42,078 nucleotides of DNA, taken from contig NZ_JACHHV010000016.1 in the NCBI RefSeq assembly GCF_014202895.1, positions 1 through 42,078 on the forward strand, read 5' to 3'. Position numbers and translations under genes: made by a program. Shown here in pieces: positions 30,754 to 41,898 of this stretch (positions are counted from its first letter, which is position 1; the number at the start of each line of letters is the position of its first letter). This DNA is from Lactovum miscens. Its GTDB lineage: Bacteria > Bacillota > Bacilli > Lactobacillales > Streptococcaceae. The notes under the pieces were generated by a model that had not been told where the DNA came from, ran no database searches, and saw only the letters and a program-made list of their open reading frames with translations.

Positions 30754-32388
30754 TTAAACAGTAATAAACTCTTTCAATTTTAATTTCGATTCGGAAATTA
30801 TTTTATTTGGGTAGTTTAAATTTTCAAGAGTAGCTATTGCATTTGTAGTTGTAGAAATACCTTCCCTAATTTTATAATCACTCTTATTTGTAGTTTGTGA
30901 ACTAGTAAAATAATAATATTTATTAAAATCTATGCCTGATTTTATCAGTTCAATATCATGAGTCGTTATCATATACAAACAATTCTCATTTTTTAACCAA
31001 TTCATAAGGCTAGTCCCAATAGATACTCTTTCAGCTGAATTTGTGCCACTAAAAATTTCATCTAAAAATAGATAATTAAATTTATCAGATGACAAATTAT
31101 CAATCAAAATCTTTATTCGCTTGCCTTCTGCAACAAAATGACTTTCCCCATTCATAACGTTATCACCAATGTTTATTGAACTTGATACTCCTCCGTATGA
31201 TAACGAAAAATATTTAGCAAGTGCGAAATTCAAGCTTTGAGCCAGAATACAATTTATAGCGGTCGTTCTCATAAAGGTTGATTTTCCTGATGCATTATCT
31301 CCACTAATAACGATATTATTATAAAATTTAATAGAATTACTAACTGGATTTTTTAAAAGAGGATGATATATTTCTTTTGCTTTTAAACCCTTTTCATTAG
31401 AAAATATTGGTTTACAGTGATAAATGCTGTATTCCAGGTAATTCAAATTTGATATAGCAGCATCCAAATTTGATATTATATCCAAAATCTCTTTTATAGA
31501 ATCGTTGTACTTAAATAATTTACTATTTAATTGTGAATAAGCAATAAAAGGAATCATAAATATCGCATTAATATATTCAAATATTATTGATGTTTCAGAA
31601 ACGTCTGTTTTATAATTAAAAGCATACCCTAAAAAATTCAAAATTTTAAATTTATTCAAATCTCGAGCAAGAACATTACTATCTGGAAAATCTAACTTTT
31701 TTAAAACATTTGACACATGAATAATTCGTACTAAATATGACATTCTTTCTAATTCAAGCTCTAATGAATATTTTCTAAATACATAGAATATAATATTAAA
31801 GGAAACACTAAAAATAAATATCAAAGAACCAAGTATGTTATTTATAAAAGCTGTAAGAAGAGATAGTGCTGGTAACAACCCCAATATTATGTACATTCTA
31901 TCATATCTAACTTTTTGTAATCCTGAGCCATATACAATTTGAAATGTCAAATTGTTGTTTTTCTTTCCTAATTTTGCCAGTACATTCTGGATTCTCTCTC
32001 TTACACTCTCATTTTCCAAAAGATATGATTTTAAATTCTCAAAATCATCATCTATTGAAAACTTGAGTAATCTCATTTTTGAATATAATAATTCTCCACC
32101 TAAACTAGTTTGGGTACTATTTATTTGAGAGAAAATTTGTTGTAGATCTAAATTATCCCATGTATCGTCGTCTATATAGCAATCATAAAGAATATTTTTT
32201 TTCCGAACTAAAAAACTAGATGCGAGGCTATCAACTGTGTCTCCCCGTCTTTTCTGAGTATGAAGCAGAGTTCCCCACATCTTTTTCAAGGATTTTTTTG
32301 TCTTTTGCGCTTCAAAGTAATTCGTTATCAAATTAACTGACAACGACAAGAAAACAAACGCTATACCAATAAAAATCCCGAATACCAT
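30754..32388 (-). CDS. Membrane-anchored MutS-family ATPase
   Basis: This 544-aa protein ends in a MutS ATPase domain: Walker A GDNASGKSTFMRTTAIN (363-379), the MutS-type loop GESHFVAEGKRIKILID, Walker B YLFLDEIFSGTNSAERVSIG (439-458) and switch His477 (ITTHDIE). The front half is not mismatch-binding. It has an N-terminal membrane helix (about 3-21) and hydrophobic pairs near 165-205 and 270-285. It therefore belongs to the membrane-bound MutS-like proteins of unknown function and not to DNA repair MutS1. It ends the peptide cluster and lies 9 bp after a small membrane protein gene, probably acting with it in export, immunity or membrane remodelling. The role is inferred. Confidence 0.8.
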   Translation of the reverse strand: MVFGIFIGIAFVFLSLSVNLITNYFEAQKTKKSLKKMWGTLLHTQKRRGDTVDSLASSFLVRKKNILYDCYIDDDTWDNLDLQQIFSQINSTQTSLGGELLYSKMRLLKFSIDDDFENLKSYLLENESVRERIQNVLAKLGKKNNNLTFQIVYGSGLQKVRYDRMYIILGLLPALSLLTAFINNILGSLIFIFSVSFNIIFYVFRKYSLELELERMSYLVRIIHVSNVLKKLDFPDSNVLARDLNKFKILNFLGYAFNYKTDVSETSIIFEYINAIFMIPFIAYSQLNSKLFKYNDSIKEILDIISNLDAAISNLNYLEYSIYHCKPIFSNEKGLKAKEIYHPLLKNPVSNSIKFYNNIVISGDNASGKSTFMRTTAINCILAQSLNFALAKYFSLSYGGVSSSINIGDNVMNGESHFVAEGKRIKILIDNLSSDKFNYLFLDEIFSGTNSAERVSIGTSLMNWLKNENCLYMITTHDIELIKSGIDFNKYYYFTSSQTTNKSDYKIREGISTTTNAIATLENLNYPNKIISESKLKLKEFITV

Positions 32389-32397
32389 TACCTCTCC

Positions 32398-32733
32398 TTA
32401 TCTGATTATAAAAAGTTGAATAAGAAAAAAACTAGTTCCTATCAATGCTACAACATTCAAAAAAATCAACAAATATTTTAATACAGGGTTAAAATATCTC
32501 AAAGAATATTTTAAAGCACCTGAAACGAATAACATAGAAACAGGTAACGCTAAAACATTGAATTTGCTTCCAGAAGTTGGTTGATTTGTCAGTATAAACC
32601 CAAAATTTATTTTTATTGTTTCTGGTAAAAACAGTAATAATAAAATGAGGGATAAGCCAAACTCTAAAATAGTCCACACGATGAAAAAATCAGCAATATC
32701 ATGTCTCTTAACAATATCATATTTCTTAATCAC
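32398..32733 (-). CDS. Small membrane protein of the MutS-like pair
   Basis: This 111-aa protein has about three to four hydrophobic helices (near 18-36, 57-73, 82-108). The start is a GTG at 32733 with AAGGAG five bases ahead. It is spaced 9 bp from the MutS-like ATPase gene and should be its partner. I do not recognise a family. In the original gene order it followed a frame that is now cut by IS sequence at 32820. Confidence 0.6.
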   Translation of the reverse strand: MIKKYDIVKRHDIADFFIVWTILEFGLSLILLLLFLPETIKINFGFILTNQPTSGSKFNVLALPVSMLFVSGALKYSLRYFNPVLKYLLIFLNVVALIGTSFFLIQLFIIR

Positions 32734-33350: not shown

Positions 33351-33402
33351 TTCAGGTGTTTTTTTATTGCTTTAGGTGGCTAACTTAATTTTACAATTTG
33401 CC
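33351..33402 (-). mobile_element. IS30 left-end stub
   Basis: A left-type IS30 terminal repeat (reverse complement of that at 32821) ends at 33402. Its inner side is only about 20 bp before ISLre2-like sequence begins. Its outer bases provide the last codons and stop of the ABC transporter gene. Confidence 0.75.
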
Positions 33403-34974
33403 AATATATAAATTTAAATCAATGCTGTGATACTCAGTTTTGTTCAAAAACAAATCAAAATTCCCATGATATATAAATATTGTTGTCATCTTCATTTCCT
33501 TAATATAAGAGATGAAGTTAAAAACAACAGAATCTTCCAGATTAGATAATACTTCATCCAAAATCAAAATATTTGGTTTACTTAATAGCGCTCGAATGAG
33601 TTTGATTTTTTGCAACTGTCCACTACTCAACGCTATTGTGACTGATGACACCTCCTGTGATAATGGTAACTCAAAACTCAGGGTATTAATTAGCCTAAGT
33701 AATTGGTCTGTTTCGTAAGACTCAATTCCTTTAATCATATTGTCTTTAATAGTACCATCAAATAAAAAATTTTCCTGTGGAACATAAACAATCTGACTAT
33801 CAGGTTTCTTTTTTATTTCTCCTTCAAAATTTTCATGGTAACCTACTAATGTTTTTAATAAAATAGACTTTCCCACTCCGTTTGACCCTGAAATTCTAAG
33901 AATATCCTCTTCCAAAAGCGAAAACGAGAGCCTTTTAGTAAATAGGGCTTTGTGCTCTACATATGGTATAAAATTTTTTACAAACAGTAACTCTTTATCT
34001 TTCAAAGTTGAAAATTTATACTCACCCAAAGAATAAGTTTCGCTTGAAAAATTTAACGATTCAATCCGAGCAATCGAAACTTTCATTTGAGAAAATAATG
34101 CGGGAATATCTAATAATTTTCCTACTGGTAAGAACAGCATTGCTGAATAACTATTAAAAGCAACTAATGAACCTAATGATAATTGATGATGAACTACCAA
34201 AAGACTCCCAAAAAACAAGGTAATCAGTGGGATAATCACTGTTAAAAGTCCTGAAATATTACCCAAAAATGATAATATGGTGTTTGTTTTAATGTTTACA
34301 TCTTTGACTTGCTCTACTGAATTAGTGAATTCTTTTTGTTCTACATCTTTTAATTTGTACAGATCAATTAATAATTTATTACGCACATAAGCATTTAAGA
34401 AGCCAATCAGCCGATCTCGGTATTCTTGAAGCTTTTTTGATAAAGTAAAAACTTTTTTAGAAGTGATATAAGATACGAATACAAAAACAGGGATGGTCAA
34501 TAAAATCAAAAGAGTCAATTTTAAATCTAAACTAAGCAGGACAACCATATAAAGAATGATAAGGAGAATATTTGGAATGCTATTCAATAATATTGAAAGA
34601 AGTTGGTTCCCAATAACTTCACAGTCATTGATAATAGTATTGATAAACAGCCCATTATTTTTAGAATTTTCTTTTGAATCCAGAAATCTTTCAGCAATCT
34701 TTTGCCGAAAATCAAAGATAATGAGCTGAAGCCATTTAGAAGAAAAGTAACTAATAGCTACGTTAATAGGAATCAAGGACACAACCAATACCATAGTTAT
34801 TATTAAAATCGTCCTTAAGTTCTGTAGATGACCGCTTACCAACACATTATCAATAATGAATTTCGTGATATAGGGAAAAACTGTACTGACTACTACCTGT
34901 AAAAATATGAATATTCCTAAAATAAAAAGCAAAAATTTGTGTTTCACAAATATATTTTTATAATTTATTTTCAT
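33391..34974 (-). CDS. ABC exporter (fused membrane and ATPase domains) of the peptide cluster
   Basis: This 527-aa half-transporter has six membrane helices (about 13-35, 55-78, 130-150, 153-172, 238-262, 266-285) followed by an ATPase with Walker A GSNGVGKS (363-370), YVPQENFLFDG, signature ALSSGQLQK (448-456), Walker B ILILDE (469-474) and His503. It lacks an N-terminal C39 peptidase domain, so leader removal must be done by another protein. In context it should export the product of the radical SAM cluster or give immunity. The last three codons and stop (33391-33402) come from the IS30 end, so the native tail is lost, though the ATPase core is complete. The ribosome site GGAG precedes the start. 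Confidence 0.85.
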   Translation of the reverse strand: MKINYKNIFVKHKFLLFILGIFIFLQVVVSTVFPYITKFIIDNVLVSGHLQNLRTILIITMVLVVSLIPINVAISYFSSKWLQLIIFDFRQKIAERFLDSKENSKNNGLFINTIINDCEVIGNQLLSILLNSIPNILLIILYMVVLLSLDLKLTLLILLTIPVFVFVSYITSKKVFTLSKKLQEYRDRLIGFLNAYVRNKLLIDLYKLKDVEQKEFTNSVEQVKDVNIKTNTILSFLGNISGLLTVIIPLITLFFGSLLVVHHQLSLGSLVAFNSYSAMLFLPVGKLLDIPALFSQMKVSIARIESLNFSSETYSLGEYKFSTLKDKELLFVKNFIPYVEHKALFTKRLSFSLLEEDILRISGSNGVGKSILLKTLVGYHENFEGEIKKKPDSQIVYVPQENFLFDGTIKDNMIKGIESYETDQLLRLINTLSFELPLSQEVSSVTIALSSGQLQKIKLIRALLSKPNILILDEVLSNLEDSVVFNFISYIKEMKMTTIFIYHGNFDLFLNKTEYHSIDLNLYIGKL

Positions 34975-35009: not shown

Positions 35010-35734
35010 GGCAAATTGCAACTTTAATTTAGCCACACCGATACATCTGAAGCGGTGTCTGATACTCGAAAACATTTTTCTTGGATAATGATTCATCTAA
35101 GTCTCAATTTTAGAAACAGCCTGAACTGTTGTTTGTTTTGTTCCTTTGGATAAGAAACGTCTTATCATGCGGTTATGATTCTCATTGCTTCCACGCTCAA
35201 AGCTGGCATAGGCATGACAATAGTAAACCGGACAAGTCACCGCCTCATGAAGGCGGGCAAATTCACGCCCATTATCTGAAGTAAGAGATTCGAACTGAGT
35301 TTCCTTTTGAAGTGCTAAGAGTGCCGTATTGACGGATTGGGCAGACTTATCTGGAATTAAACGAATGGTTTCATTGAGGGCCGAAGTGAGCTTAGAACGA
35401 CGACCGCAGTGACTTTTATTGGCTCTGTGGCATTCATGTGCGTGAGTTGCAGAGTACCTTGTCTTGGTCTTTAGTTGAACCTGTCCCCCGCTTGAGTTCA
35501 TGATGAATTGTCTGAGGGACTTTATTTAAGAGTTGAGCGATCTGACGATTACTTAGCTTCTCCTTGTTGTGCCAACGTTCAATCAACTGACGTTCTGCAT
35601 AAGTAATTTCTTTGCCTTTTGTGATAGAATCATCTTGCATCTGAATCCTTTTCTACTTTTTGTTCTTACAAACTCAAGTCTAAGAGATTCAGGTATTTTT
35701 TTCTTAAGGTGGCTAAACTAATTTTACAATTGCC
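35010..35734 (-). mobile_element. IS30-family element, internally deleted
   Basis: The 725-bp element has both terminal repeats (GGCAAATTGC at 35010, CAATTGCC ending at 35734) and an exact 13-bp duplication of the target on both sides. It is about 300 bp shorter than a normal IS30-type element because the middle of the transposase is missing. It lies between the PH-like gene and the ABC transporter gene, and separates what was probably one transcript. Confidence 0.88.
35047..35640 (-). pseudogene. IS30 transposase, deleted, frameshifted and with a nonsense codon
   Basis: The first part (from the ATG at 35640) reads MQDDSITKGKEITYAERQLI with an N-terminal helix-turn-helix (LSNRQIAQLLNKVPQTIHHE). 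After a frame change the text continues as ATHAHECHRANKSHCGRRSKL, then jumps to the catalytic part (SLTSDNGREFARL, NENHNRMIRRFL). A TAG replaces the Trp codon in KIETW, found intact in the copy at position 90. It cannot make active transposase, so the copy must have been moved by another element or decayed after insertion. Confidence 0.85.
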
Positions 35735-35793: not shown

Positions 35794-36399
35794 TTATTTT
35801 TGATTTCTATTTATTACTGAAATAATTAGGCTTGCAATAATAAGCACAACAATCACAGCTCCTAAAATGAGTACCAGAGGTATCGTGATGTTTGCAAGAG
35901 AAGGAGAAACACCACTAATTATCCCCAAAATTACCACAGGAATAGCCAAAGCAATTGCTGAATTTGACATATAGTAAACTGCTTTATATGCATTACTTAC
36001 CTTTTTTGAGGGGACAACGTTCCCTTTTGAAGCATCTGATACAATTTGAGGTTGTTTCTCTTTCAATTCCTCAATAAATTTCTGAGGATTTTCAACTCCT
36101 AATACTAACTGATTTACTTCTTCATCAATTACTTCAATTAAAACAGGCTCCTCATGTCTTTTAATATTAACATAAGCTTTTACTCCATCTTTGTCATATA
36201 AACCACTATTATTACCAAAAAAGCTAGTTCCTGCAACCCGCCAACCTCCTCCATTGTTGAGGATGCCATAATCTCTTGTAATACTTTTTATATGCGTAAA
36301 TGGAATACTAAAGTGACCTTTAAAGCCTAAAAGTCTAGAAATCCCTAAAGGATTTACATCCATAGTTGACTGATTGATATTAATTTCATTACTTGGCAT
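35794..36399 (-). CDS. Bacterial PH-like membrane protein of the peptide cluster
   Basis: This 201-aa protein has an N-terminal soluble domain (about 1-115) patterned like a bacterial PH (YokE/EbsA-type) fold: FSIPFTHIKSITRDYGIL, GGWRVAGTSFFG and VNIKRHEEPVLIEV, ending in a helix ENPQKFIEELKEKQ. A linker follows, then two membrane helices (143-163 and 171-195). PH-type membrane proteins occur with bacteriocin gene sets as accessory or immunity proteins. An AAAGGAGA site precedes the start, 30 bp after the transglutaminase-like gene. The function is inferred from context. Confidence 0.65.
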   Translation of the reverse strand: MPSNEININQSTMDVNPLGISRLLGFKGHFSIPFTHIKSITRDYGILNNGGGWRVAGTSFFGNNSGLYDKDGVKAYVNIKRHEEPVLIEVIDEEVNQLVLGVENPQKFIEELKEKQPQIVSDASKGNVVPSKKVSNAYKAVYYMSNSAIALAIPVVILGIISGVSPSLANITIPLVLILGAVIVVLIIASLIISVINRNQK

Positions 36400-36429: not shown

Positions 36430-37470
36430 CTAATTTCTTAATGTCTGAGCATTTGCTATAGCAGTATGTTGAGGATAATTATCAATACCATAGGCTGGAA
36501 GAGAGATATAAAAGTCGTTCAGCAAAGATTGGTTTTCAGAAAAAACCTCCCAGTTAGAGTCATACCCCCCTTTTTGTCCAGTATCTGTCCAAGTACTATC
36601 TGCTCCATACCATGAACCACCAAGGTTTAATTCATTCCATGTATGCAAATAATTAGCTTCTCCAGCTGACGAAGCTGCATAAAGCTCAGGAGTGATGTTA
36701 TCTACTACAACCGATTGAAGACCAGCATATAAAAATCCAAGTTGAGTCAATTCAGTATATTCTTGACATACACCACCTCCTATATTATAGGCTTCTAATC
36801 CTGCACCATAGTCGTCTTGAGGTACAGAAACATAAGATTGTAATACCCCTATAGCAAGTCCTCGTGAATATAAATCTCCACTTTTTTGTGCTTCGTTTGA
36901 ATCATCAGTAGAATATTGTAATCTATCATCAATAAGCTGAACTATTGCATCAGCTTTTTGTGACTTACTGTTCTTACCTTTTAGTGCCACTGAAAAATCA
37001 TACATTATATTATACACAGTTTGTATCTGACTTTTTGAATACTGAGCCTGAACGTATTCACCTTGATTATTTTCAAGCTTAATTGCAGAAAAACCTTTTT
37101 CTATTGGCAATACCGAATGTACTTGAAAAGCATGTAGTATATTATAATCATACCAATCATAATTAACAGCAAGCTCTTTATCAGTAAGATTAAATAGTTG
37201 AGTTTCAGAAATCGTGTTGGGACTTGACTTCATTATCAATTGTTCCTGATTAGCATCAAGCGATCTAGGTTGGTAATTTGAATTAATTTGAGAATTTATT
37301 AGCTTTAATTTAAATCTAGGTGCTTTTTTGAAAAAATGAGATCCATCCTTCACTACCTTATCAAAATCATGATTTCTTTGATTTATAGTTTGAGCTTTAG
37401 AAATCATTGGAAAACAAAGCAAACTTGTTAATAAAATTAGCGAAAAACCACCAATAGAATGTTTAATCAT
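36430..37470 (-). CDS. Secreted transglutaminase-like protein
   Basis: This 346-aa protein has a signal peptide (basic MIKHS, hydrophobic core to about 22, likely cut after SKA at 24-26). Its C-terminal half is a transglutaminase-like domain with the triad Cys235 (GGGVCQEYTEL), His277 (LHTWNEL) and Asp291 (GADSTW). This fold covers proteases, peptide cyclases and transamidases. Placed between a radical SAM gene and an exporter, it may cut or crosslink the exported peptide outside the cell. It starts 38 bp after the radical SAM stop with an AAGGAGA site. It is intact. Confidence 0.8.
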   Translation of the reverse strand: MIKHSIGGFSLILLTSLLCFPMISKAQTINQRNHDFDKVVKDGSHFFKKAPRFKLKLINSQINSNYQPRSLDANQEQLIMKSSPNTISETQLFNLTDKELAVNYDWYDYNILHAFQVHSVLPIEKGFSAIKLENNQGEYVQAQYSKSQIQTVYNIMYDFSVALKGKNSKSQKADAIVQLIDDRLQYSTDDSNEAQKSGDLYSRGLAIGVLQSYVSVPQDDYGAGLEAYNIGGGVCQEYTELTQLGFLYAGLQSVVVDNITPELYAASSAGEANYLHTWNELNLGGSWYGADSTWTDTGQKGGYDSNWEVFSENQSLLNDFYISLPAYGIDNYPQHTAIANAQTLRN

Positions 37471-37508: not shown

Positions 37509-38534
37509 TTAAGACATCGCTTTTTCAATAACCATTTTCTGAGTGTATCTTGAAAGTACATCATCTTTTAAAATGTAATAATTCTCTTTAATGGCACTAA
37601 GCAAGTCCTTATTATTGTACAGATACGCACAATATAGGCATTTATGTGCAAAGATAGGAGGTTGCTCCCCTAACCATTGAGAGGCAACTTCAACTATCTT
37701 CTTAGGACCATCTAGGAAAATCCAAATTTTTAAAAAATCATTATGATGTTTCTCGAATATTTCTTTTAATTTTGAATTTTCAAGCTTGCCCAAGTGAAAT
37801 TCTTCAATGTCGTTGACAGTAAGTCCGCAACAAGCCATAATGTCGCCTCTTGGTTCTAAAGCAATTGTATCAAAAATCCCTTCACAGCCGCTCTCGATAG
37901 AATCATCCATTACAGATTCATCATATTGGTATATTGTATCTGTATGGAAAGAAACCCACGTGGCTGATAAAAGTTGCAAGTATTTTTCGTTTTCAGTATT
38001 TGCAATATATTGTTGATATAGTGGGTGATTTATAAAATCATTTGCTTTAAATTTTTTGCTTTTATTTGATTCAACAGAAATACAAGTTGTGATTTCATTT
38101 TCTGTAGCCGCAATAGTAGCATTTAATACACTTTCTACAGGGATATATTGTTGATGACTGTCTCCTGTAGAAAAGTTTATTTCTGTTAAGCCACTCTCGT
38201 GCAAAGCTGCTACTTTTTTTCTGGCTAAGCCTAAAGATTTACCCCAAAAGCCATTTGTTACACATCTTGTCATTAGTCCTAAGTCATTAGCATACTTGAT
38301 GCTCTGTACTAATAAAGAAAATTCAATAAAACATTCTCCACCAGAAAAAACAACAATTTTTACTGATGGTATCTCTTTGATTTGATCCAGAAAATACTTC
38401 ACTTTATCAAAATTCAAAGACGTCCCTTGTAAATGGGGCCCACAAGAAAAACAACATTCATCACACCGAGCCACACATTGATAGGTCATTAAAACTGCAG
38501 CCATTTCAGGATTAGGCTCAATTATATTATTCAT
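37509..38534 (-). CDS. Radical SAM enzyme, putative peptide maturase
   Basis: This 341-aa protein has the SAM-cluster motif CVARCDEC (Cys20, Cys24, Cys27) with further Cys28 and Cys31, the FSGGECF motif for SAM binding and CVTNGFW later. Its C-terminal part holds EPRGDIMACCGL and HKCLYCAYLY, cysteines fit for an auxiliary SPASM/twitch-type cluster. This is the layout of enzymes that modify ribosomal peptides. I start at the ATG at 38534 after GGAAAG; a frame opens slightly earlier. It overlaps the end of the 174-aa gene by 8 bp, so the two are made together, suggesting that protein is its substrate. Confidence 0.85.
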   Translation of the reverse strand: MNNIIEPNPEMAAVLMTYQCVARCDECCFSCGPHLQGTSLNFDKVKYFLDQIKEIPSVKIVVFSGGECFIEFSLLVQSIKYANDLGLMTRCVTNGFWGKSLGLARKKVAALHESGLTEINFSTGDSHQQYIPVESVLNATIAATENEITTCISVESNKSKKFKANDFINHPLYQQYIANTENEKYLQLLSATWVSFHTDTIYQYDESVMDDSIESGCEGIFDTIALEPRGDIMACCGLTVNDIEEFHLGKLENSKLKEIFEKHHNDFLKIWIFLDGPKKIVEVASQWLGEQPPIFAHKCLYCAYLYNNKDLLSAIKENYYILKDDVLSRYTQKMVIEKAMS

Positions 38535-39051
38535 AACTTTCCATACCATTATATTCTTTTACATACAAAATGAACTCGGTTACAACACTTGTTGCAAATT
38601 TTAAGCCTCCTCGTTCCATAGCAGCACTTACCAGACTACTAAAGTAATTTTGATTAACGGATTTGAGAATGGCGCTGTTTTGATTGGGCTTTTCTCCTCC
38701 AAGAACGAGAACTGCTCCAGCTACAATAACTGCTAATGCAAGCACTACAAAGGTCGCTCCCACAGCAACTGTTCCAACATTTAATCCAGCTGCAGCATTA
38801 ACAAAAACACCGACGTTTACCGCAGCTTTGCTCTCCATTCTCACAGGAATTCCATAAGCATTATTTAATGTAACATTAGAGTCTAAACGAAATTTTTTCA
38901 TAAATTCTACAGGACTGGGCAAATCAGTAATAATAGCACTGTTTTCATAATCGAAAGCTGCAGTCATAGCAGAGGATACATCCAGATTAAAATTGGATTC
39001 ATTATTGAAGTTTTTGAGTGGTTCTCCAAAAAGTCGAGTATTGTTGGTCAT
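38527..39051 (-). CDS. Putative modified-peptide precursor / hydrophobic substrate protein
   Basis: This 174-aa protein belongs to no family I know. Residues 1-75 are polar and leader-like. A hydrophobic stretch at about 76-119 begins with repeats of Asn-Val-Gly (79-81 and 91-93, with VNAAAGLNVGTVAVGA) and ends in LVLGGEK. A polar tail follows (120-174). It has a strong AAAGGAGG site and is translationally coupled to the radical SAM gene. The Asn/Val/Ala/Gly-rich core could be the part that is modified, and LGG at 117-119 a possible cut site. Alternatively it is a membrane-bound immunity protein. No cysteine is present, so thioether chemistry is excluded. Confidence 0.6.
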   Translation of the reverse strand: MTNNTRLFGEPLKNFNNESNFNLDVSSAMTAAFDYENSAIITDLPSPVEFMKKFRLDSNVTLNNAYGIPVRMESKAAVNVGVFVNAAAGLNVGTVAVGATFVVLALAVIVAGAVLVLGGEKPNQNSAILKSVNQNYFSSLVSAAMERGGLKFATSVVTEFILYVKEYNGMESYE

Positions 39052-39121
39052 AATAAGGCCTCCTTTTTAAATTAGCTTTTGATATTAAGAACAATTTCTA
39101 ATATCTTTTACGTTAGTTTGA

Positions 39122-39365: not shown

Positions 39366-39752
39366 ATGATAATAACAACAGACAACCAACAGAAAGTTAT
39401 CGATACCTTTTTCCTCATTGCAAAAGAAACTCCGAGTGTCAATAAAATCACTTTACAAATGATAGCTTCTCGTCTTGGTATACGTAGAGAGAGTATTTAC
39501 AAATACTGTTTTAGAATACCTAATGAAATACTAGAAAGAGCTCACTATTTAGTTGATAAAAAAATTGAAGAGTCAGTTAATGAGTTTGTCAATGGGGAAC
39601 GCCATGATTTTGCGGTCTTTCTTTCTCATGAAATACTTCCCCTTCTATATGAAAAAAGAGATTGGTTGCAAATTTTGTATAATACAATCCTTGATCCAAA
39701 ATGGGGGAAAATTTTAGAAAAAAATATGTACCCCTTATTGAAAATACCTTGA
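39366..39752 (+). pseudogene. TetR-like regulator, truncated
   Basis: The frame gives 128 residues with an N-terminal TetR-type helix-turn-helix (about 28-50: ITLQMIASRLGIRRESIYKYC) and the first part of the ligand domain. It stops 17 bp before an IS30 end at 39770. In another frame LDNIGKVW continues the ligand domain, so a frame change plus loss of the rest through IS30 is likely. TetR proteins are usually 180-200 aa. It is divergent from the 174-aa gene and was probably its regulator; the cluster may be free of this control now. Confidence 0.6.
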
Positions 39753-40007: not shown

Positions 40008-40153
40008 TTAATTTCCTGTTGCAGTATTATAAGCATAACCAATGATGCTTATAATATTAAGCCAATCGTTCCATCCGCCACCATTGATTTCCATAAGTTC
40101 ATCATCTGTTACCATCTGATATTATTAAATAATTGTTCAAAATTATTATTCAT
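40008..40153 (-). pseudogene. Double-glycine leader peptide gene, frameshifted
   Basis: The ATG at 40153 opens MNNNFEQLFNNI, and a frame change near 40115 leads into VTDDELMEINGGG-WNDWLNIISIIGYAYNTATGN, ending at 40008. The ELMEINGG stretch is a classic double-glycine leader end. The mature part would be about 22 residues with two Trp (GWNDW) and a hydrophobic middle. A 35-codon frame from the ATG at 40115 is open but has no ribosome site. The gene lies behind a decayed radical SAM gene and an Rgg regulator, so it was probably a bacteriocin-like or signalling RiPP. Confidence 0.65.
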
Positions 40154-40304: not shown

Positions 40305-40952
40305 TTAACCGAGTAAATCATCATAAGATATGAATAATCTTTTGTTAACTTTTCCCTCTGTCCCTAAGGGCACAAAGGCATTAATCTTACTTCAGAAACT
40401 CCAAGCTCTCCTGCAAGTTTCAACATATTTTGAATGGTGTGTTTATTTTTCTTAGTCAAAACCATTGCTAAACACACTGGAATTTCTTTTTCATTAACAC
40501 AGATATACTTTTAAGGGCCTTCTCTAGTGTTCCTCTCCCTCTTATTACTGCAACATTTATTCTCATAATTGGAGATTCAAGCGATACTCGCGCTTCTCGT
40601 AAATATTTAGAATTTTCTAAAAAATTTGACGTTTTCTCTCTCTCAAGAAATTCTGTCCATCTGTAGAGAAAGAATAATAAATTTTCGACTTTTCCAATTT
40701 ATTAAGTATGCAATCAAAATATTTTGATTCCGCTGGTTCTCCACCCAACAAAGAAACTTGGACAATTTCTTTCTCCTTAATTATTTTCAAGATATTACTG
40801 ACTTCATCAAAACTAAGATCATGACCAACGTAATCTTCTAAATAACAAAATTTACACCTTAAATTACAACGACTTGTTATAAACCATTTAACGTCTATTG
40901 GATTTTTTAAATACTCAACCTCAATATAAAAAGGATAACTTGGTATCCCAAA
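40305..40952 (-). pseudogene. Radical SAM peptide maturase, decayed
   Basis: The minus strand reads IPSYPFYIEVEYL, then WFITSRCNLRCKFCYLEDY with the CxxxCxxC motif (about 40845-40870), VSLLGGEPAESKYF, FSTDGQ, and after frame changes LAMVLTKKNKHTIQNM and EVRLMP/FVPLGTEGKVNKRL. No start codon precedes it in frame, and the C-terminal cysteine part is absent. The motif order is that of a radical SAM/SPASM enzyme. At least two frame changes make it dead. It differs from the intact radical SAM enzyme at 37509. Confidence 0.7.
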
Positions 40953-41013
40953 TTAATCCTATATTACCCTATTTTAAATTTTTTAAATATTCAATTTGAA
41001 TATATGAAACACG

Positions 41014-41898
41014 CTATAATTTTTCAATCTCCTTTTCTAGATTTCTTGCTTGATCAACTTCTCCATAATATTCTAAAGTGTCGGCACACTTTTGCATTTC
41101 TTTTTTTCCTTTTTCCCTAAATCCTTGAAGATACTCATAATGCCCTTCATGATACTTTAACATTATTTTTTCATAAAAAAAATCTGATGAGATTTCCATT
41201 GCTCTTAAATGATTAATATATTTAAAAGCTTGGACCAAATCACTTCGTAATAACCATACATTAATGATGTTTAAAAGTGTTCTGATAACAATTTGTTGAT
41301 TTAAATGAATCGTATGATAAAAATTAGTTCTCCCTAATATATACGAGCCATAATAAGACAACATAGTATTATCAAAAAAGTTTAAGCAGTTACCAAATAT
41401 CCATAGCTCATATCTACCCCATTCTTGTACATCATCTAGGTAATCAGTTATAAATAGAACATCTTCCTTCATGATTTTTGAGCCTGACGCAAGTGCTAAA
41501 ATAGCTCTAACTACCTTTTCATCAATCTTATAATACTTTCGAGTTGGAAAATTAGCTGATTTACCTTCCCATTCTTTAACCATTGATTTTAACTTTACGA
41601 GATCTCTTTTAACATAAGCTTGAGATAACTCTCTTCTGAATGAATAATTTTCCGACGCAGTGTAATTGTCATAAATTGTTTGAAATTCATCCAAAGACAC
41701 ATTTGAATTTTTAAGTGAAACAAAGAATTTACTAACCGTAATATCCGACTCCCCTGACTCAAATTTTGACTGCTGAGCCTCTGAAAACTCACCAGTAGTC
41801 ACATCCTTTAAGGTTAAACCTTTGGCCTTTCTTATCAAAGCAAAGGTTTCTCCAATTTTTAGATTTAATTTTTTATCCATTTGTATATTTTCTTTCAT
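41014..41898 (-). CDS. Rgg/GadR/MutR-family regulator
   Basis: This 294-aa protein has an N-terminal XRE helix-turn-helix (about 13-65: KIGETFALIRKAKGLTLKDV, FSEAQQSKFESGESDITVSKF) and a long helical repeat domain as in Rgg proteins that bind short hydrophobic peptides. It appears intact. The start may be the first Met or the Met at residue 7. It stands at the head of the decayed radical SAM/peptide genes and likely controlled them. Many streptococcal radical SAM peptide loci are under Rgg control. A palindrome sits at its own promoter. Confidence 0.85.
   Translation of the reverse strand: MKENIQMDKKLNLKIGETFALIRKAKGLTLKDVTTGEFSEAQQSKFESGESDITVSKFFVSLKNSNVSLDEFQTIYDNYTASENYSFRRELSQAYVKRDLVKLKSMVKEWEGKSANFPTRKYYKIDEKVVRAILALASGSKIMKEDVLFITDYLDDVQEWGRYELWIFGNCLNFFDNTMLSYYGSYILGRTNFYHTIHLNQQIVIRTLLNIINVWLLRSDLVQAFKYINHLRAMEISSDFFYEKIMLKYHEGHYEYLQGFREKGKKEMQKCADTLEYYGEVDQARNLEKEIEKL

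What the first reader, a model, noticed from the sequence alone, without database searches (positions are those of the whole stretch)
38527..39051. Precursor-like protein with Asn-Val-Gly repeats and no cysteine
The core at about residues 76-119 is unusual: VNVGVFVNAAAGLNVGTVAVGA then a long Val/Ala/Leu run and LGG. It is too long for a usual RiPP precursor and is fused to a polar tail. Because there is no Cys, modification would have to be at C-alpha, C-beta or by epimerisation, crosslink or similar. It may be a new substrate class.
Basis: partly seen in the sequence, partly recalled or inferred. Interest (0 to 1): 0.7.

Follow-up and report, generated by a model that had tools for sequence, protein, structure and literature searches.

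The report
Ribosomal precursor of mirror-residue channel peptide
This gene most likely encodes the precursor of a water-repelling peptide that a partner enzyme flips into alternating left- and right-handed residues so that it can roll into a membrane channel, and it belongs to a large family of such gene pairs spread over many bacterial phyla that I found no published description of.

Summary
The ORF is real: 174 aa, minus strand, good ribosome-binding site, overlapping the start of a radical SAM gene. It is a three-part RiPP precursor: leader (1-75), cysteine-free V/A/N/G core (76-119), polar helical follower (120-174). The nearest relative, on a Lactococcus plasmid, has the same gene order with a different core. 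A search with the radical SAM enzyme found the same pairing in nine phyla; its only solved relative is the peptide epimerase YydG/EpeE, and all eight EpeE cysteines are kept. The cores carry two signals that ordinary transmembrane segments from the same loci lack: V/I alternation (period 2) and Asn spaced exactly six residues apart (38 pairs seen, 8.8 expected), not explained by DNA duplication. Six residues are one turn of the beta-6.3 helix of gramicidin and polytheonamide; the window's Asn obey it (P about 0.002). Best reading: an EpeE-type epimerase installs D-residues so that the core forms a beta-helical membrane channel; secreted cysteine proteases trim leader and follower; a PH-domain membrane protein gives immunity. 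Many Gram-negative precursors carry Tat-like or lipoprotein signals. Epimerisation, pore formation and immunity are inferred. The family sits between epipeptides and proteusins and meets the definition of neither.

The parts
38527..39051 (-). precursor gene, 174 aa (P0001), stop codon included
   Evidence: homologue on a L. lactis plasmid with the same gene order
38827..39051 (-). leader, residues 1-75
   Evidence: more conserved than the core towards L. lactis (37% against 20%)
39019..39036 (-). leader motif RLFGEP (residues 6-11)
   Evidence: pattern found in 21 of 50 curated precursors, in Gram-negative ones directly after the signal sequence
38695..38826 (-). core, residues 76-119, V/A/N/G-rich, Asn at spacing 6 and 6
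38530..38694 (-). follower, residues 120-174, with GGLKF motif; predicted helix
   Evidence: GG..[FY] motif in 10 of 50 followers; AlphaFold helix 134-167, pLDDT blocks 84-92 in residues 131-170
39059..39064 (-). ribosome-binding site AGGAGG
   Evidence: read from the sequence
37509..38549 (-). radical SAM enzyme, EpeE/YydG-like (start probably at 38534, overlapping the precursor)
   Evidence: TIGR04078 E 2.4e-22, under its cut-off; PDB 8ai1-8ai6 are the only structure matches; eight cysteines shared with a true EpeE
36430..37470 (-). secreted transglutaminase-like cysteine protease, candidate for trimming the exported precursor
   Evidence: Transglut_core E 1.8e-4, just under cut-off; Cys/His/Asp motifs at residues 233-294 and a signal sequence, by eye; L. 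lactis has a C1 papain-type protease at this place
35794..36399 (-). PH-domain membrane protein, candidate immunity protein
   Evidence: bPH_5 E 4.7e-7; bPH_5 in 15 of 33 small neighbours that I chose
33391..34974 (-). ABC exporter without peptidase domain
   Evidence: 53% identical to the one in the L. lactis cluster
32398..32733 (-). small membrane protein shared with another Streptococcaceae cluster
   Evidence: 41% identical to L012:3998-4309, next to its radical SAM gene
30754..32388 (-). membrane-linked MutS-like ATPase, same neighbour in L012
   Evidence: 42% identical over 536 positions

Best explanation
The gene encodes a three-part RiPP precursor. The leader presents the core to an EpeE-type radical SAM epimerase encoded just downstream. 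The enzyme takes a hydrogen from C-alpha of chosen core residues and returns one from a cysteine on the other face (inferred to be window C241, matching EpeE Cys223), turning them to D. With D- and L-residues alternating, the core can coil into a beta-6.3 helix, in which residues six apart stack and the Asn form a ladder. The precursor is exported (ABC exporter here; Tat-like or lipoprotein signals in many Gram-negative relatives), leader and follower are cut off by a secreted cysteine protease, and the freed peptide inserts into rival membranes as a channel. The PH-domain membrane protein protects the producer. Shown by sequence: precursor/enzyme pairing, EpeE kinship, cysteine conservation, periodicities, export and protease genes. 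Inferred: epimerisation, helix, channel, immunity.
For: Enzyme: best NCBIfam match YydG epimerase; only YydG/EpeE structures match; C25, C29, C32, C222, C240, C304, C307 in 90 of 90 rows and C241 in 89 of 90, EpeE included (8 short rows dropped, 3 left out as duplicates). Pairing: 78 of 100 radical SAM loci have a candidate by rule (some are other membrane proteins), 50 curated by eye, nine phyla (names). Strong profile hits only beside the enzyme in 395 genomes. Core periodicity: V/I lag 1 Z -6.2, lag 2 +4.7, lag 3 -3.6, lag 4 +4.4 in 48 cores; 228 control transmembrane segments give lag 2 -1.9, lag 4 +4.8. Asn-Asn at lag 6: 38 against 8.8 (Z 12.6), parity-keeping Z 9.0; 26 against 3.7 without Thermus; 16 of 22 cores with two or more Asn have such a pair, 6.0 expected. 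One representative per lineage: 14 pairs against 3.5 without Thermus. Codons at lag 6 are not more alike than expected, 0.34 against 0.36, so not recent duplication. Alternating epimerisation by PoyD and the beta-helix of polytheonamide are in print (passages of PMC8326336 and PMC9505594). Membrane permeabilisation by the epipeptide is in print (passages of PMC7026026).
Against: No chemistry was observed. V/I alternation is carried mainly by proteobacterial cores: in 28 lineage-spread cores lag 2 is only Z +0.9 (lag 1 -3.5, lag 4 +2.5). In the window alone V/I lag 2 is Z +1.4. The second half of the window core is Leu/Val-rich without Asn, and AlphaFold draws a low-confidence helix at residues 98-117 (pLDDT about 60-65), as an unmodified transmembrane helix would give. 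The L. lactis homologue's core has no Asn ladder. EpeE itself makes only two, independent, epimerisations (PMC8326336). Other residues than Asn also repeat at lag 6, so the ladder is one part of a hexad pattern.
Confidence: 0.6

Rival explanations
1. Epipeptide-like or SDP-like reading: the enzyme makes only a few D-residues and the trimmed core is a membrane-active, mostly alpha-helical peptide toxin cut from the middle of the precursor.
For: EpeE makes two epimerisations (PMC8326336); SdpI-type proteins match 4 of 33 chosen small neighbours; weak SdpC-toxin matches in two precursors (E 0.003-0.004, under cut-off); AlphaFold helix at 98-117.
Against: The cores as a set do not show the alpha-helical periodicity that control segments show, and the Asn lag-6 signal has no reason in an alpha-helix.
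Confidence: 0.17
2. The radical SAM enzyme does other chemistry on Val or Asn, for example cyclopropylglycine formation as TvgB does on Val repeats, or a crosslink.
For: Val-rich repeat precursors can be substrates of such an enzyme (TvgB; abstract and passages of PMC9062424). Mesorhizobium relatives carry a further B12-type radical SAM enzyme, so some members probably have more modifications.
Against: The structural relatives are epimerases only, and all eight EpeE cysteines, including the inferred hydrogen donor, are kept.
Confidence: 0.12
3. An ordinary small membrane protein that happens to lie beside a radical SAM gene.
For: Hydrophobic middle, low-confidence predicted helix.
Against: Gene pairing across nine phyla; no strong hit away from the enzyme in 395 genomes, three weak ones at 8.6e-5 to 7.6e-4; periodicity unlike transmembrane segments.
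Confidence: 0.04
4. A soluble left-handed beta-helix (hexapeptide repeat) rather than an alternating D/L helix explains the six-residue period.
For: Hexad periodicity.
Against: D, E, K and R together are under 2% of the cores, too few for a soluble fold; period 2 in V/I and an adjacent EpeE-like enzyme are then unexplained.
Confidence: 0.02

Closest known systems
Epipeptides (YydF/EpeX with epimerase YydG/EpeE)
   Same: Related radical SAM epimerase with the same eight cysteines; a membrane-active product is in print for the epipeptide.
   Different: Enzyme far under the TIGR04078 cut-off (79.8 against 300 bits); precursor 174 aa with a follower instead of about 50-56 aa; a true YydG locus found here (L106) has a 56-aa precursor, an M50-like protease (by eye) and an ABC ATPase.
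Proteusins with PoyD-type epimerases (polytheonamide)
   Same: Long V/A/N-rich core, large leader, period 2, six-residue Asn spacing (one beta-6.3 turn; the ladder in polytheonamide is recalled), cysteine protease for release (PoyH, PMC9505594).
   Different: Enzyme is EpeE-like; [quoted passage not shown] No NHLP family match for this precursor, core not at the C-terminus, follower present.
SDP cannibalism toxin (SdpC/SdpI)
   Same: Hydrophobic peptide cut from the middle of a larger protein (recalled); SdpI-like neighbours in some relatives.
   Different: No radical SAM enzyme in that system (recalled); SdpC family matches only weakly and under cut-off.

Membership tests
Epipeptide | epimerase over the TIGR04078 cut-off | tested here: not met
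   79.8 bits against 300
Epipeptide | short precursor (about 50 aa) with the core at the C-terminus | tested here: not met
   174 aa, core at 76-119, follower 120-174
Epipeptide | radical SAM cluster plus second cluster cysteines and hydrogen-donor cysteine | tested here: met
   all eight aligned with EpeE of L106; which one is Cys223 is inferred from the PDB chain numbering
Epipeptide | M50-type membrane protease in the operon | tested here: not met
   transglutaminase-like protein instead
Proteusin | nitrile-hydratase-like (NHLP) leader | tested here: inconclusive
   no NCBIfam match for P0001; family leaders resemble NHLP over 35-50 columns with probability 47-52%, single relatives match NHLP-type models under cut-off
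Proteusin | PoyD-type epimerase | tested here: not met
   EpeE-like enzyme with conserved C-terminal cysteines
Proteusin | core with alternating D-residues | not testable with these tools
   sequence periodicity fits; chirality needs experiment
Sactipeptide or ranthipeptide | cysteine in the core | tested here: not met
   no cysteine in P0001
RiPP in general | precursor gene paired with a modifying enzyme, leader and core distinguishable | tested here: met
RiPP in general | modified peptide isolated | not testable with these tools
   no product known
SDP toxin (TIGR04032) | family match over cut-off | tested here: not met
   no match for P0001; 17 bits against 99.2 in two relatives

The most novel reading that the evidence does not exclude
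A widespread, so far undescribed class of ribosomal 'gramicidins': EpeE-type enzymes turn V/A/N cores into alternating D/L beta-6.3-helix channels with an Asn ladder, made in at least nine phyla. The core is buried between leader and follower, and in many Gram-negative bacteria the finished, folded precursor leaves the cytoplasm by the Tat pathway or as a lipoprotein, which would be a new export route for a RiPP (as far as I recall).
Probability: 0.45. Interest if true: 0.88.

Novelty: new variant of a known kind. Interest (0 to 1): 0.76.

Why it matters
Polytheonamide-type channels are prized but known from few, mostly uncultured, sources (recalled). If right, a two-gene system (precursor plus one SPASM-type epimerase) from culturable lactic acid bacteria, Vibrio, Thermus and others makes the same architecture with an unrelated enzyme: convergent evolution of ribosomal beta-helix channels, dozens of natural cores to study, and a testable rule (Asn every six residues) for finding more. 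It also raises concrete questions about how a D/L helix is kept harmless before export and whether Tat carries it.

Tried and rejected
Direct search for the precursor in genome contigs (99 pattern matches, no relative) and in 146 related genomes (only itself and three matches at E 0.0028-0.0055) gave nothing useful; the radical SAM enzyme was the productive bait. A single-sequence enzyme search of viral contigs found nothing; with the alignment it found six. PHROGs gave only one weak tail-protein match to a relative. Foldseek against the PDB with the Photorhabdus precursor model found no match better than E 0.76, so the leader/follower fold has no solved counterpart by this model. The NHLP comparison stayed inconclusive. 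Recent tandem duplication as the source of the six-residue period was tested and rejected. Literature: ten searches of open PMC papers found no description of this family in the listings; most subscription papers are not held.

Full report
Minus strand 38527-39051 encodes 174 aa without cysteine; the other strand is closed. An AGGAGG box precedes the start, and the stop overlaps the likely start of the radical SAM gene (read). The genome (1.76 Mb, 61 contigs) has one copy.

Cluster anatomy, all on the minus strand: precursor 38527-39051, radical SAM 37509-38549, secreted transglutaminase-like protein 36430-37470, PH-domain membrane protein 35794-36399, a transposase remnant 35097-35640 (by eye), ABC exporter 33391-34974, a 111-aa membrane protein and a MutS-like ATPase. 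A L. lactis plasmid has precursor, radical SAM (61% identical), a C1 protease and the same ABC exporter (53%). Another Streptococcaceae genome bin has the 111-aa protein and MutS-like ATPase beside its radical SAM gene. An Enterococcus mundtii plasmid has precursor, radical SAM, ABC exporter and an Rgg regulator.

The enzyme. Its best NCBIfam match is the YydG epimerase, far under the cut-off. A profile of six relatives finds only YydG/EpeE among solved structures. In 90 aligned rows, one of them a true EpeE, seven cysteines are invariant and the eighth is in 89 (eight rows under 300 aa were dropped, three left out as duplicates). From the chain numbering the second cysteine of the CC pair is inferred to be EpeE Cys223, the proposed hydrogen donor (section 11 of PMC8326336). 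The native numbering is recalled, so this step is an inference.

The family. The alignment found 82 relatives in genome contigs, 80 kept, and six in viral contigs. With the plasmid and genome-search loci, 78 of 100 enzyme loci have an adjacent ORF passing a mechanical rule; this over-counts, since some passing ORFs are other membrane proteins, and misses some short ones such as L012. I curated 50 by eye. Their hosts, as named, cover Bacillota, Bacteroidota, Pseudomonadota, Deinococcota, Acidobacteriota, Elusimicrobiota, Myxococcota, Actinomycetota and Planctomycetota. The most distant enzymes (for example L073-L078, L085-L087, L089) gave no candidate under the rule and are probably other subfamilies.

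Architecture of precursors. A leader motif like RLFGEP is in 21 of 50 by pattern, in Gram-negative ones just after the signal. By eye 17 of 50 begin with a twin-arginine signal (L007, L008, L017, L018, L027, L028, L033, L035, L045, L046, L051, L052, L053, L054, L057, L063, L091; sequences) and 7 have a lipobox by pattern; no signal predictor was run. Followers share GG..[FY] in 10 of 50. AlphaFold of the Photorhabdus precursor gives a confident helical leader (blocks of 80-92 in residues 51-140), a core mostly under 50 and a helical follower (blocks of 73-86 in residues 261-330); for the window protein the follower helix is confident, residues 60-98 are under 50 (apart from one residue) and 98-117 is a helix at about 60-65. 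Conservation by region is mixed: leader/core/follower 84/41/73% for L017/L018, 37/20/27% for window/L. lactis, but 25/63/26% for L008/L046 (13 pairs).

Periodicity. In 48 non-duplicate cores V/I pairs are depleted at lags 1 and 3 and enriched at 2 and 4; 228 control transmembrane segments from the same loci show the alpha-helical pattern instead. Asn pairs at lag 6: 38 observed, 8.8 expected; a shuffle that keeps odd/even positions leaves Z 9.0; without Thermus 26 against 3.7 (22 cores with two or more Asn, of 47 kept). 16 of those 22 have such a pair, 6.0 expected. Controls show no Asn lag-6 excess (Z +0.3). Relatedness inflates these numbers, so I reran with one core per lineage: 7 of 12 with a pair against 3.55 (P 0.009, parity) and 14 pairs against 3.5 without Thermus. 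In 28 lineage-spread cores the V/I lag-2 signal falls to Z +0.9, so alternation is strongest in Proteobacteria. Ala and other residues also recur at lag 6. Codon identity at lag 6 is as expected, 0.34 against 0.36, so selection on the protein, not DNA duplication, keeps the period. In the window the three Asn are six apart (P 0.0018 free, 0.008 parity).

Interpretation. Alternation plus a six-residue repeat is what a beta-6.3 helix of alternating L- and D-residues would need; polytheonamide's beta-helix and D-residues are in print (passages of PMC9505594; of PMC5808125; of PMC8326336), its Asn ladder is recalled. An epimerase-like enzyme beside such cores makes the channel reading the best one. 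Immunity: bPH_5 domains match 15 of 33 small neighbours that I chose, SdpI 4, SunI-like PH 3; SunI is a known immunity protein (abstract of PMC6391423). Release: secreted papain-type or transglutaminase-like proteases in the two lactococcal-type clusters; beta-lactamase-like hydrolases in 4 of 21 larger neighbours that I chose. Mesorhizobium clusters add a B12-type and another radical SAM enzyme, so some members are probably modified further.

Outside the clusters. In 395 Lactobacillales genomes the enzyme profile hits nine and the precursor profile hits strongly in the same nine, 0-59 bp from the enzyme; three other genomes have weak hits (8.6e-5 to 7.6e-4). Several of the nine were in the profile, so the informative part is the lack of strong hits elsewhere.

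What is not shown: any modification, any product, any activity.

Noticed in passing
window 40380-40980, minus strand: A second radical SAM gene broken by frameshifts (SRCNLRCKFCY motif in one frame, the rest in others).
   Followed up: partly
window 40010-40120, minus strand: A short frame with a double-glycine-leader-like stretch (MVTDDELMEINGGGWNDW...), perhaps a class II bacteriocin remnant.
   Followed up: no
window 39366-39752 (+) and 41014-41898 (-): A short helix-turn-helix protein diverging from the precursor and an Rgg-family regulator; an Rgg gene also sits beside the E. mundtii cluster (L006).
   Followed up: no
window 35097-35640, minus strand: Transposase remnant (by eye) inside the cluster, between the PH-domain gene and the ABC exporter.
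   Followed up: no
L007:2599-3504 and L023:6336-6956: Thermus and Calidithermus precursors whose core has Asn at nearly every second position, the most extreme cores seen.
   Followed up: partly
L091-L095: The Xanthomonas version lies on contigs called viral in IMG/VR; possibly prophage-borne.
   Followed up: no
L036:4000-12764: Mesorhizobium cluster with three radical SAM enzymes, one with a B12-binding domain, and more than one precursor-like frame; possibly a more heavily modified product.
   Followed up: partly
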